Below are positions 44,636 through 57,503 of a DNA stretch of 64,000 nucleotides, in pieces. A program made the translations under genes and the position numbers. This DNA comes from Polaribacter dokdonensis. Lineage in GTDB: Bacteria; Bacteroidota; Bacteroidia; Flavobacteriales; Flavobacteriaceae. The DNA lies in assembly GCF_024362345.1 (NCBI RefSeq), contig NZ_CP101505.1, positions 1,633,501-1,697,500 on the forward strand, given 5' to 3'. The stretch's first letter is position 1. Every line of letters begins with the position of its first letter. Below the pieces are notes generated by a model that was not told where the DNA came from, did no database searches, and saw nothing but the letters and a program-made list of their open reading frames with translations.

Positions 44636-44971
44636 ATGTCTAAAACATATTATGATGCTGCTGATTTGAGAAAATTTGGCAAAATTACAGAATGGAGTGA
44701 AGAATTAGGAAACAAGTTTTTCGATTATTATGGAAAAGTTTTTGAAGAAGGAGCATTAACCGCTCGTGAAAAATCATTAATTGCATTGGCTGTAGCACAT
44801 ACAGAACAATGCCCTTATTGTATAGATGCTTATACAAAAGATGGTTTACAAAGAGGTATTACAAAACCAGAAATGATGGAAGCCATTCATGTTGGGGCTG
44901 CAATTAAAAGTGGTGCAACCTTAGTTCATGGTGTTCAAATGATGAACAAAGTGAACAAATTAGAAATGTAA
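44636..44971 (+). CDS. Arsenosugar-cluster AhpD/carboxymuconolactone-decarboxylase-like protein
   Basis: This 111-residue cytoplasmic helical protein has the AhpD-type CxxC, Cys59 and Cys62 in HTEQCPYCIDAY, and the following TKDGL helix. It closely matches the peroxidase-like family that accompanies ArsS in arsenosugar clusters. It could reduce As(V) intermediates or protect the pathway from peroxides, which is an inference. ArsS follows after 124 bp. Confidence 0.88.
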   Translation: MSKTYYDAADLRKFGKITEWSEELGNKFFDYYGKVFEEGALTAREKSLIALAVAHTEQCPYCIDAYTKDGLQRGITKPEMMEAIHVGAAIKSGATLVHGVQMMNKVNKLEM

Positions 44972-45072
44972 GCAGAGCAACCAAAAAGTTTCTTGGTTTT
45001 ACCATAAATAGCTTATACAAAAACCACAAAACATCTTTCTTCGTACATAAATTAAAGAACCTAAAAAAGATT

Positions 45073-45087
45073 CTGAATTAGATTCAG
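45073..45087 (+). repeat. Hairpin immediately upstream of arsS
   Basis: CTGAAT at 45073-45078 and ATTCAG at 45082-45087 form a 6-bp stem with a 3-nt loop, ending 8 bp before the arsS ATG. The position covers the ribosome-binding region, so it could limit translation initiation. No T tail follows. Confidence 0.35.
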
Positions 45088-45095
45088 CTTAAAAT

Positions 45096-54900: not shown

Positions 54901-55716
54901 ATGAAAGCAGCACAATTACAAGAAACAATCACTTTTTTAAAAGAACAAGGCATCACTGCTCCAGAGGTAGGTATTGTATTAGGTACTGGCTTAGGAAAAC
55001 TGGTAGACGAAATTGAAATATTAAAAGAGGTTGCGTATACAGATATTCCTAACTTTCCTATTGCTACAGTAGAATTCCATTCAGGTAGAATTATCTACGG
55101 AAAATTGTCTGGTAAAATGGTTGTGGTGATGTCAGGGCGTTTTCATTTGTATGAAGGATATACGCCTTGGGAGGTTACATATGGTATACGTACCATGCAT
55201 GGCTTAGGCATTCAGCATTTATTAATTTCTAATGCAGCAGGTGCTATTAACTTAGATTATATCAAAGGCGATTTAATGTTGATTGAAGATCATATTAATC
55301 TACAAGGCAGCTCACCTTTAGCTTTTAAAGGCGCTAATGAATTCGGAAACATCTTTGCAGATATGCTTGAACCCTATTCAAAAAAGATGAATACAGCACT
55401 GAATTTAATCGCAACCGAAAATAACATTCAACTGCATTCAGGAACGTATGCAAGTGTATTAGGGCCGCAATTAGAAACTAGAGCCGAATATAGAATGTTG
55501 CAAATTTTGGAGGTAGATGCAGTAGGAATGAGTACTGTGCCAGAAGTAATTGTGGCCAAGCAATTAAATTTACCTTGTGCAGCAATTTCTGTATTAACCG
55601 ATGAATGTGATCCTAAGAATTTACAACCTGTAGACATTGCTGAAATTATTGCTATTGCTGGCCAAGCAGAACCTAAAATGATTATACTATTCAAAGAGGT
55701 GCTAGCTAAGTTGTAA
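54901..55716 (+). CDS. Purine nucleoside phosphorylase (trimeric type)
   Basis: This 271-residue enzyme cleaves purine nucleosides with phosphate to ribose 1-phosphate and base. It shows GIVLGTGLGKL, FHSGRIIYGKLSGKMVVVMSGRFHLYEGY split over residues 59-87, SNAAGAIN, and LGPQLETRAEYRM with the base-binding Glu. At the position where human PNP has Asn243, the sequence is VLTDECDP, an Asp that resembles adenine-accepting MTA phosphorylases. In this cluster it could remove adenine from the ArsS product to give an arsenoribose 1-phosphate. A housekeeping role cannot be excluded. Confidence 0.92.
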   Translation: MKAAQLQETITFLKEQGITAPEVGIVLGTGLGKLVDEIEILKEVAYTDIPNFPIATVEFHSGRIIYGKLSGKMVVVMSGRFHLYEGYTPWEVTYGIRTMHGLGIQHLLISNAAGAINLDYIKGDLMLIEDHINLQGSSPLAFKGANEFGNIFADMLEPYSKKMNTALNLIATENNIQLHSGTYASVLGPQLETRAEYRMLQILEVDAVGMSTVPEVIVAKQLNLPCAAISVLTDECDPKNLQPVDIAEIIAIAGQAEPKMIILFKEVLAKL

Positions 55717-55738
55717 TTGTACCTTTCTGCTATTGTTT

Positions 55739-56698
55739 ATGATCAACAGTTTTACATCTTTTATTTTAGAAAAAACAGGTGCTACTTCTTTAAATGAACT
55801 GGGGCTTATTCAAGAATTATGGAGTGGCTATGGGCACATCAAACGTTTTGCGTTAGAAGGTAGCCCTTTGCAAACTGTTGTGGTCAAAAATGTACAATAC
55901 CCAAAACAACAGCAACACCCAAGAGGTTGGAACTCCCAACTTGGTCATGAACGCAAGTTAAAATCGTATCAAGTAGAAACAGCTTGGTATACCCAATATG
56001 CAAAACAGAGCGAAGCACGTTTACCCAAATGTTATGGTGTTTATCAACAAAACAACGAAGTGTGTATTGTTCTAGAAGATTTAGATGCTGCAGGTTACAC
56101 ATATCGAAAACAAGATATTTCTTGGCAAGGTATTGACAATTGTTTGGCATGGCTTGCCAAATTTCATGCATCTTATTTAGGGAAAACCCCTCAAAATTTA
56201 TGGGCTATTGGCAGCTATTGGCACTTGGCTACAAGACCTCAAGAATTAGCGGTTTTAGCAGATGTTCCTTTAAAAAAAGCAGCACCCTTCATCGATCAGA
56301 AATTAAACGATTGCAGGTATTCAACATTTATTCATGGAGATGCAAAATTGGCCAACTTTTGTTTTTCTGCCAATGATGAAGTAGCTGGTGTCGATTTTCA
56401 ATATGTGGGTGGTGGTTGTGGTATAAAAGATGTTGCTTATTTTATTGGAAGTTGTTTATCAGAACAAGAATGCGAACGTTTAGAAGATACCATACTATCT
56501 ACTTATTTTATCCATTTACATAAAGCACTAGGTAAAGAACACAAAGCATTAGAAAAAGAATGGCGTTCTTTATATCCTTATGCTTGGGCAGATTTTCATC
56601 GTTTTTTAAAAGGATGGAGTCCTGGGCATTGGAAAATTAATTCCTACAGCGAACGCCTTACCCAAAAAGTAATCAAAGAAATTTCAAATGGACTTTAA
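55739..56698 (+). CDS. Aminoglycoside-phosphotransferase/EcKinase-like small-molecule kinase
   Basis: This 319-residue protein has the kinase-fold motifs: a nucleotide-binding VVVKNVQYP, the catalytic loop FIHGDAKLANFCF (about residue 200-212), and VDFQYVGGGCGIKDVAYFIG in place of the DFG-like metal site. These place it in the EcKinase/CHK-like (DUF1679) group that phosphorylates small hydroxylated molecules. I start at ATG 55739; the in-frame TTG 6 bp upstream is less likely. Its last 11 bp overlap the phosphatase gene. The substrate may be the arsenosugar or its aglycone. Confidence 0.87.
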   Translation: MINSFTSFILEKTGATSLNELGLIQELWSGYGHIKRFALEGSPLQTVVVKNVQYPKQQQHPRGWNSQLGHERKLKSYQVETAWYTQYAKQSEARLPKCYGVYQQNNEVCIVLEDLDAAGYTYRKQDISWQGIDNCLAWLAKFHASYLGKTPQNLWAIGSYWHLATRPQELAVLADVPLKKAAPFIDQKLNDCRYSTFIHGDAKLANFCFSANDEVAGVDFQYVGGGCGIKDVAYFIGSCLSEQECERLEDTILSTYFIHLHKALGKEHKALEKEWRSLYPYAWADFHRFLKGWSPGHWKINSYSERLTQKVIKEISNGL

Positions 56699-57503
56699 TG
56701 CACTAGCAGACATTGCCACAAAAGCGGCTTTAGAGGCAGGTATGCTAATACAAAAAGCCTTAAAAAAACCCGTTGTTGTGCAACACAAACAAGGAGGCAA
56801 CACAATAGCATCACAAGTAGTTACTGCAGTAGATTTGGCGTGTGAAAAAATAATTTGTAAGCACTTGGAACCATCCTGTAAAAAGTTTGATATTGGTTTG
56901 CTTACAGAAGAAACCGAAGATGACCAAAGCAGATTTACCAAAGACTATTTTTGGTGTGTAGATCCTTTAGATGGTACGTTAGCATTTATAAACAAACACC
57001 CAGGTTTTTCGATTTCCATAGCACTGGTTTCTAAAGAAGGTGTACCTTTTATTGGCGTAGTTTTAGATCCAAGTTCTTCCAACTTATATGTAGCTATTAT
57101 AAATAAAGGTGCGTATAAAAATGGGCAACCTTGGGTATTACCTCAACCCAAAAACACGCTTACCTATGTTACAGACAAAAGCTTAGCAGACACGCCTCAA
57201 AAAGAACTAATTTCAAATCATATTCAAGAGCGTTTAAAAGCATTAGGTTTAACTCAGTATAATGAAATTTCAGGTGGTGGTGCAGTATTAAATGCATTAT
57301 TAGTTGCCGAACACAGACCAGCATTATTTATAAAACCAACTAAAACAAAACTAGGTGGAGGTAATCTTTGGGATTACGCAGCAACTACTTGTATCTTTAA
57401 AGAGCTTGGGCTAAAAGCAACTACTTTTAATGGTGATAAAATAAATTTAAACCCTTTGGATACCACTTTTTTGAATTTTCAAGGTATATGCTTTAGTGCC
57501 TAA
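56688..57503 (+). CDS. Inositol-monophosphatase-family phosphatase
   Basis: This 271-residue Mg2+-dependent phosphatase of the FIG superfamily shows the metal-site motifs ETED (about residue 75), WCVDPLDGTLAF (about 90-101), and GGNLWDYAAT near residue 225 (WD motif). It resembles CysQ/3'(2'),5'-bisphosphate nucleotidases and inositol monophosphatases; the precise substrate cannot be read from sequence. It overlaps the kinase gene by 11 bp, so the two are translated together, and it is the last gene of the arsenosugar run. Confidence 0.9.
   Translation: MDFNALADIATKAALEAGMLIQKALKKPVVVQHKQGGNTIASQVVTAVDLACEKIICKHLEPSCKKFDIGLLTEETEDDQSRFTKDYFWCVDPLDGTLAFINKHPGFSISIALVSKEGVPFIGVVLDPSSSNLYVAIINKGAYKNGQPWVLPQPKNTLTYVTDKSLADTPQKELISNHIQERLKALGLTQYNEISGGGAVLNALLVAEHRPALFIKPTKTKLGGGNLWDYAATTCIFKELGLKATTFNGDKINLNPLDTTFLNFQGICFSA

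What the first reader, a model, noticed from the sequence alone, without database searches (positions are those of the whole stretch)
44636..57503. Arsenosugar cluster fused with a SusCD/symporter uptake route and accessory enzymes
The window shows ArsS, its AhpD-like partner, two DUF2064 glycosyltransferases and a nucleoside phosphorylase interleaved with SusC, SusD, a sodium symporter, a phosphoesterase-fold protein with altered ligands, an exported rhodanese, a kinase and a phosphatase. From 50141 to 57503 the gaps are about 0-45 bp or overlaps, so one transcript is likely. ArsS and TIGR04282 proteins are established arsenosugar enzymes. The inclusion of TonB-dependent import and a phosphorylation/dephosphorylation pair suggests a fuller pathway, for example making phosphorylated or lipid-linked arsenosugars or recycling imported organoarsenicals. 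The composite scheme is my inference.
Basis: partly seen in the sequence, partly recalled or inferred. Interest (0 to 1): 0.85.

Follow-up and report, generated by a model that had tools for sequence, protein, structure and literature searches.

The report
Uptake genes replacing an arsenic methyltransferase
Many marine Flavobacteria carry, inside their genes for making arsenic-containing sugars, a set of import genes that seems to stand in for the enzyme that methylates arsenic, which suggests that they take up ready-made organic arsenic instead of making it.

Summary
In detail: ArsS, its AhpD-like partner, two DUF2064 proteins, a rhodanese and a nucleoside phosphorylase form one same-strand run with SusC, SusD, a sodium symporter (SSF) and a phosphoesterase-fold protein with altered ligands (MPE). 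The linkage is conserved: ArsS is present beside MPE in 76 of 80 loci. The kinase and phosphatase are optional (0 of 80; 7 of 60 genus stretches).

The new point: this genome (one contig, 99.98% complete) has ArsS but no recognisable arsenite methyltransferase, ArsM. Among 148 ArsS+ Flavobacteriaceae, 14 of 30 with MPE lack any ArsM, against 7 of 118 without MPE (p = 5e-7). Within the genus it is 14 of 21 against 0 of 63, after one correction and one exclusion. ArsS is never missing where MPE is present (0 of 30, 0 of 21). In congeners ArsM can sit in the cassette's exact slot, and some carry both. One ArsM-less genome has a different TonB-receptor/ABC importer in that slot.

Best reading: this uptake route imports a preformed organoarsenical, probably methylated arsenic, that feeds ArsS and makes ArsM dispensable. 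No substrate was measured; imported arsenosugar or arsenonucleoside is the main rival.

The parts
43889..44599 (+). DUF547-type protein (name recalled from family knowledge), upstream member of the locus
   Evidence: 36 bp before the AhpD-like gene; homolog in the locus in 66 of 80 relatives, mostly further downstream there; no NCBIfam match
44636..44971 (+). AhpD-like partner protein of ArsS (TIGR04169)
   Evidence: 193 bits, cut-off 120; in 76 of 80 loci
45096..46151 (+). ArsS, radical SAM enzyme that adenosylates arsenic
   Evidence: TIGR04167 442 bits, cut-off 300; in 76 of 80 loci
46197..46874 (+). GTx, divergent DUF2064 protein that travels with TonB-dependent receptors (cassette)
   Evidence: PF09837 81 bits; TIGR04282 108 bits, below cut-off 134; N-terminal motif lost
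46937..50131 (+). SusC-type TonB-dependent outer-membrane transporter (cassette)
   Evidence: TIGR04056 603 bits, cut-off 368; 73 of 80 loci
50141..51580 (+). SusD-like lipoprotein (cassette)
   Evidence: PF12771 306 bits; 74 of 80 loci
51582..52913 (+). SSF-family sodium symporter (cassette)
   Evidence: PF00474 26.0 bits, cut-off 22.8; 80 of 80 loci
52901..53728 (+). MPE, Cys-rich phosphoesterase-fold protein that has lost the first metal site (cassette)
   Evidence: PF12850 43 bits; ligand and Cys conservation in 110 rows; model pLDDT 95
53734..54225 (+). Exported rhodanese-domain protein
   Evidence: NF045521 211 bits, cut-off 145; 71 of 80 loci; export is read from the N-terminus, not predicted by a tool
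54270..54884 (+). TIGR04282 transferase
   Evidence: 217 bits, cut-off 134
54901..55716 (+). Purine-nucleoside phosphorylase
   Evidence: NF006054 312 bits, cut-off 218
55733..56698 (+). EcKL/APH-type kinase, optional
   Evidence: PF02958 64 bits; 0 of 80 and 7 of 60 stretches
56688..57503 (+). CysQ/inositol-monophosphatase-like protein, optional
   Evidence: TIGR01331 114 bits, below cut-off 229; 0 of 80, 7 of 60 stretches

Best explanation
The locus is an arsenosugar cluster in which uptake has replaced the methylation step. SusC and SusD take an organoarsenical made by other organisms across the outer membrane with TonB energy, and the sodium symporter takes it across the inner membrane (inferred from the families). 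In the cell it gives the dimethylated arsenic on which ArsS acts, perhaps handled by the Cys-rich MPE (inferred). ArsS adds the 5'-deoxyadenosyl group (known for ArsS elsewhere). PNP, the TIGR04282 protein and an unlinked TIGR04283 enzyme would finish the sugar (inferred). Shown here: conserved linkage, ArsS retained wherever MPE is found in the two genome sets, ArsM missing repeatedly where MPE is present, and ArsM in the cassette's slot in congeners. The substrate is not shown; methylated arsenic fits best, because absence of ArsM with retention of ArsS puts the imported compound between the two steps.
For: No ArsM of either kind in this complete genome. MPE against any ArsM among 148 ArsS+ genomes: [[16,14],[111,7]], p = 4.9e-7; completeness >= 95%: [[16,13],[93,3]], p = 1.6e-7; genus: [[7,14],[62,2]], p = 3e-9, corrected [[7,14],[63,0]]. 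Asymmetry: ArsS missing in 0 of 30 and 0 of 21 MPE+ genomes, ArsM in 14 and 14. Nearest relative G267 has ArsM in the cassette's slot; 5 stretches carry both, in the order cassette-ArsM. Tree-based pairs go the opposite way. G063: ArsM-less, with a non-homologous TonB/ABC importer in the slot. G462 in another family: SusC-SusD-SSF-MPE-ArsS and no ArsM match above background. T4282 and PNP kept in 14 of 14 ArsM-less cassette genomes of the genus, window included.
Against: Cassette and ArsM coexist in 16 of 30 family and 7 of 21 genus genomes. G046 and G098 (and the less complete G095, G062, G065, G170) have ArsS with neither ArsM nor MPE. Tree-based tests are borderline (median p 0.03 and 0.06) and underpowered in the genus. 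G001 and G129 link relatives of GTx-SusCD and the G063 importer to a nucleoside hydrolase, and in G129 to a methylthioribose-kinase-like protein, without ArsS, which favours a nucleoside-like ligand. L086, L148 and L234 hold the cassette with no ArsS beside it. An unrecognised methyltransferase could do the work of ArsM. No transport or arsenic data.
Confidence: 0.48

Rival explanations
1. The cassette imports a compound downstream of ArsS, such as an algal arsenosugar or a 5'-deoxy-5'-dimethylarsinoyl nucleoside, which is salvaged by phosphorolysis and re-glycosylation, so that de novo methylation becomes unnecessary.
For: SusCD systems usually serve ligands larger than dimethylarsinate (recalled). 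In G001 and G129, which lack ArsS and ArsM, GTx-SusC-SusD plus the ABC importer is followed by a nucleoside hydrolase and, in G129, a methylthioribose-kinase-like protein that could act on 5-modified ribose. PNP lies in the cluster.
Against: ArsS should then be as dispensable as ArsM, but it is missing in 0 of 30 and 0 of 21 MPE+ genomes. SusC and SusD of G001 and G129 are only 35-43% identical to the window's, so the ligand may differ.
Confidence: 0.24
2. The cassette handles something in parallel (for example arsenic tolerance or nutrient uptake at the same sites), and an unrecognised methyltransferase replaces ArsM; the negative association reflects lineage and habitat.
For: Coexistence of cassette and ArsM in many genomes; borderline tree-based tests; generic methyltransferases exist in every genome searched (199 of 199 match NF008823 at E <= 0.001, 19 over cut-off).
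Against: Swap at the same position within one genus, several independent changes on the tree, all or nearly all in the opposite direction, and a second, non-homologous importer in the slot of another ArsM-less genome.
Confidence: 0.19
3. In ArsM-less strains ArsS and the importer work on another compound, not arsenic (for example a sulfur or selenium compound).
For: No ArsM in the genome; substrate not tested.
Against: ArsS scores 442 bits to the arsenosugar equivalog and its DNA is 90% identical to that of G267, a congener with ArsM; the other cluster genes are kept.
Confidence: 0.09

Closest known systems
Arsenosugar biosynthesis by ArsM and ArsS (Synechocystis SsArsM/SsArsS; passages of PMC8552651 read; Xue et al. 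2019 and Cheng et al. 2021 seen only as citations)
   Same: ArsS, AhpD-like, TIGR04282 and TIGR04283 families
   Different: No ArsM; TonB/SusCD-symporter-MPE cassette in its place
SusCD polysaccharide or peptide utilisation systems of Bacteroidota
   Same: SusC-SusD pair of the known families
   Different: No glycanase or peptidase in the run; linked to ArsS and a sodium symporter. The usual content of such loci is recalled
E. coli ynjABCDE (AhpD-like, binding protein, permease, ATPase, sulfurtransferase)
   Same: The binding protein of G063's alternative importer is 37% identical to YnjB over 336 residues and over the NF008633 cut-off; both settings have an AhpD-like protein and a rhodanese
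   Different: YnjA and YnjE are only distantly similar to the window's AhpD-like protein and rhodanese (21 and 26 bits); E. coli ynj has no ArsS. The window itself uses SSF, not this ABC system
Calcineurin-like phosphoesterases of the Ap4A-hydrolase type (3qfm, 2gju, 3rqz)
   Different: First-site Asp and His and the last His replaced by Gly, Tyr and Gly in 110 of 110 rows, catalytic His by Val in 109 of 110; five invariant Cys

Membership tests
ArsS (TIGR04167 equivalog) | Score over the curated cut-off | tested here: met
   442 bits, cut-off 300
ArsM/ArsS arsenosugar pathway | Arsenite methyltransferase ArsM in the genome | tested here: not met
   No NF038099 match at E <= 1e-40 and best NF008823 match E = 5.9e-10, far below cut-off, in a one-contig genome
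ArsM/ArsS arsenosugar pathway | TIGR04282 and TIGR04283 enzymes present | tested here: met
   T4282 217 bits in the locus; TIGR04283 191 bits, cut-off 182, unlinked at C1:2101788
ArsM/ArsS arsenosugar pathway | Arsenosugar produced | not testable with these tools
   No chemical data
SusCD uptake system | Adjacent SusC (TIGR04056) and SusD-like genes | tested here: met
   603 bits, cut-off 368; PF12771 306 bits
Organoarsenical importer | Measured uptake of an organoarsenical | not testable with these tools
   Inferred from genome patterns only
Two-metal calcineurin-like phosphoesterase | Full set of metal ligands and catalytic His | tested here: not met
   Three first-site ligands and the catalytic His replaced in 109-110 of 110 rows, mapped by the alignment to 3rqz
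TIGR04282 (gene at 46197) | Score over the curated cut-off | tested here: not met
   108 bits, cut-off 134

The most novel reading that the evidence does not exclude
A dedicated TonB-dependent uptake route for organic arsenic exists in Bacteroidota and has repeatedly replaced the arsenic methyltransferase in arsenosugar clusters, so these bacteria live on methylated arsenic cross-fed by algae and other microbes. Its Cys-rich, single-metal-site phosphoesterase relative delivers or reduces the arsenical for ArsS, and the uncharacterised E. coli ynj importer is a distant functional cousin.
Probability: 0.33. Interest if true: 0.87.

Novelty: new variant of a known kind. Interest (0 to 1): 0.74.

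Why it matters
Arsenosugars are major arsenic compounds of algae (recalled), and uptake of organic arsenic species is called largely unknown in one review passage (PMC12608789, passages read, about animal and human cells). If right, this gives a genetic candidate for an organoarsenical importer and makes arsenic cross-feeding between methylating organisms and marine Flavobacteria testable with natural sets of congeners: ArsM only, cassette only, both. It also sharpens the open question of why so many Flavobacteriaceae keep ArsS (148 of 199 genomes sampled).

Tried and rejected
Kinase-phosphatase pair as a core step: rejected, 0 of 80 loci and 7 of 60 genus stretches. 'Two glycosyltransferases': one is a divergent paralogue below cut-off. 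Chance linkage: rejected by 80 loci and two other families. Lineage effect alone: tested on a tree of ArsS DNA (3-4 supported pairs, all opposite or undecided, too few for significance) and on a tree of four core proteins (borderline). Both are trees of locus genes, not of species. The 'high-quality' subset was chosen by eye; I replaced it by a clean completeness cut. G121 was counted as having ArsM although that match holds an internal stop; counted as absent the family table would be [[15,15],[111,7]]. Thirteen weak MPE matches (E > 1e-30) were not counted as MPE. A Bacteroidota-type promoter pattern (motif recalled) had no match in the locus and 1 in the window against 3.0 expected; the sigma-70 scan found 52 sites against 63 expected. 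Distant MPE relatives L219-L221 share the CxC pair while keeping a canonical first site, so that pair is not special to the cassette. The nearest solved relative of the symporter is a choline transporter at only 27 bits: no substrate inference drawn. Literature; no listed title or abstract start links SusCD or TonB uptake with arsenosugars, but most subscription papers are not held.
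Full report
What is there. The window is G000:C1:1633501-1697500 of a 3.09-Mb genome in one contig, 99.98% complete. At 43889-57503 it holds 13 same-strand genes with gaps of at most 124 bp or small overlaps. Family scans identify a TIGR04169 AhpD-like protein, ArsS, a divergent DUF2064 protein (GTx), SusC, SusD, an SSF symporter, a phosphoesterase-fold protein (MPE), an NF045521 rhodanese, TIGR04282, a purine-nucleoside phosphorylase (PNP), an EcKL/APH-type kinase and a CysQ-like protein. 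The genus is probably Polaribacter: several 'same genus' contigs have the lengths of named Polaribacter contigs (for example 498862, 716920 and 166395 bases). That is an inference from lengths.

Is the linkage real. A scan of GTDB genomes with MPE gave 105 confirmed relatives, of which the best 80 loci were kept. In these 80, SSF is in 80, PNP in 78 (77 at the stricter cut), AhpD and ArsS in 76, SusD in 74, SusC in 73, rhodanese in 71, kinase and phosphatase in 0. Of the four without ArsS, three (L022, L035, L077) are cut by contig ends on that side and one (L086) has none beside the cassette. MPE and SSF are on one strand in 129 of 129 loci with MPE. Six of the 80 (L031, L033, L040, L067, L071, L085) keep SSF-MPE beside ArsS without SusC, SusD and GTx, so SSF-MPE is the smallest unit. 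In six genomes (G050, G056, G075, G152, G164, G176) the order is GTx-SusC-SusD-SSF-MPE-(AhpD)-ArsS, without T4282 and PNP beside it. In a phylum-wide sample, 6 of 296 genomes have MPE at E <= 1e-40, three of them in other families of the class. G462 has SusC-SusD-SSF-MPE-ArsS; G473 has the four genes on the strand opposite to AhpD-ArsS with one ORF between; G362 has the four and no ArsS in its 16-kb stretch.

The missing methyltransferase. In a cyanobacterium ArsM and ArsS together catalyse the first steps of arsenosugar synthesis (PMC8552651, passage read). Most ArsS+ Flavobacteriaceae carry a dedicated methyltransferase, NF038099, often within a few kilobases of ArsS. In 199 genomes of 198 genera, ArsS passes its cut-off in 148, NF038099 in 116, all of them ArsS+, and canonical ArsM, NF008823, in 19. 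MPE at E < 1e-100 is in 30, all ArsS+ (hypergeometric chance 6e-5). The window's genome has neither ArsM. MPE by any ArsM among the 148 is [[16,14],[111,7]] (p = 4.9e-7); with NF038099 alone it is [[15,15],[101,17]] (p = 8.9e-5). At completeness of at least 95% (125 genomes, 23 dropped) it is [[16,13],[93,3]] (p = 1.6e-7); the three left over are G046, G063 and G098. 'Cassette' in these tables means MPE; one MPE+ genome of the family set (G087) and two of the genus set (G200, G241) have it far from ArsS.

Within the genus. Of 97 genomes 85 have ArsS over cut-off, 70 have NF038099 and 21 have MPE; among the 85 the table is [[7,14],[62,2]], p = 3e-9. Of the two ArsM-less, MPE-less genomes, G235 has ArsM at a contig end, and the contig of G202 ends right after GTx, so it cannot be judged. 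With G235 corrected and G202 dropped it is [[7,14],[63,0]], p = 4e-11. G257 has ArsM but no ArsS match; its completeness is 70%. The genus and family sets share G000 and G131.

A visible exchange. I fetched 60 stretches of 58 genus genomes out of 97. Between ArsS and rhodanese, 13 have MPE without ArsM, 10 have ArsM without MPE, 5 have both in the order cassette-ArsM (one of them, G239, with SSF-MPE only), 25 have neither there (ArsM then mostly follows PNP), and 7 lack ArsS or rhodanese in the stretch. G267, nearest to the window by ArsS (90% DNA identity), reads ArsS-ArsM-rhodanese-T4282-PNP-kinase-phosphatase: ArsM exactly where the window has the cassette.

Tree control. On a tree of four core proteins (126 genomes, quick method) the cassette changes 18 times and ArsM 17 times. 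For pairs that differ in ArsM on supported branches, the cassette goes the opposite way in 5.6, the same way in 0.0 and does not differ in 8.4 on average (median p 0.03). For pairs that differ in the cassette, ArsM goes the opposite way in 5.7, the same way in 0.4 and does not differ in 5.9 (median p 0.06). The ArsS DNA tree of the genus agrees in direction with only 3-4 supported pairs.

A second importer in the same slot. G063 has ArsS, neither ArsM and no MPE. Between ArsS-GTx and rhodanese it carries a TonB receptor (997 aa), a YnjB-family binding protein (NF008633, 385 bits, cut-off 203), two permeases, an ATPase and a further radical SAM protein. The binding protein has matches in 2 other of the 199 genomes at E <= 1e-10, G001 and G129, which lack ArsS over cut-off and ArsM. 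There the order is GTx-SusC-SusD-binding protein-permeases-ATPase-nucleoside hydrolase, and in G129 also a methylthioribose-kinase-like protein (104 bits, cut-off 275). GTx plus another TonB receptor also follows ArsM in G231, G268 and G276 (the receptor was matched by similarity in G231 and G268). So GTx travels with TonB-dependent uptake in general.

Mechanism and uncertainty. Absence of ArsM with retention of ArsS places the imported compound between the two, which favours a methylated arsenical. T4282 and PNP are kept at the locus in 14 of 14 ArsM-less cassette genomes of the genus, window included, and TIGR04283 is present elsewhere in the window's genome, so the downstream path seems intact. 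Against this stand the nucleoside-hydrolase operons of G001 and G129, the coexistence of cassette and ArsM in many genomes, ArsS+ genomes with neither (G046, G098 and less complete ones), and loci with the cassette but no ArsS beside it (L086, L148, L234). No transport, transcription or arsenic measurement is available here, and no listed paper in nine searches describes such a link.

Noticed in passing
L239:4712-16211 and L238:4877-14976 (genomes G129, G001): GTx-SusC-SusD with a YnjB-type ABC importer, a nucleoside hydrolase and, in G129, a methylthioribose-kinase-like protein, in genomes without ArsS over cut-off: perhaps a salvage route for 5-modified nucleosides.
   Followed up: partly
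L240:2516-7775 (E. coli K-12 MG1655 ynjA-ynjE): The ynj operon pairs an AhpD-like protein, a YnjB-type importer and a sulfurtransferase, as G063's arsenosugar locus does; YnjB is 37% identical to the G063 binding protein, but YnjA and YnjE are only distantly similar to the window's proteins.
   Followed up: partly
L010:12086-12787; 233-aa ORFs in several genus loci (for example L162, L163, L184): A secreted-looking protein of about 233 aa recurs between T4282 and PNP (15 of 80 named loci); its family was not scanned.
   Followed up: no
L010:13660-14544 and L024:13865-14554: A sterol-desaturase-type protein (below the OlsE cut-off; in 52 of 80 loci) and TIGR04283 (50 of 80) recur at the downstream end of the cluster in relatives; in the window's genome TIGR04283 is unlinked.
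   Followed up: partly
L086:3287-10825, L148, L179, L180: The cassette can lie away from ArsS: no ArsS in the L086 stretch, 180 kb apart in G087, far apart in G200 and G241 (there next to ArsM, PNP and T4282).
   Followed up: partly
L086 to L226: L219-L221: Distant MPE relatives keep a canonical first metal site but carry a CxC motif and Tyr for the catalytic His.
   Followed up: partly
window 43134-43835: A queuosine precursor transporter (TIGR00697, 135 bits, cut-off 51) lies just upstream and is kept there in many genus members; no functional link is apparent.
   Followed up: no
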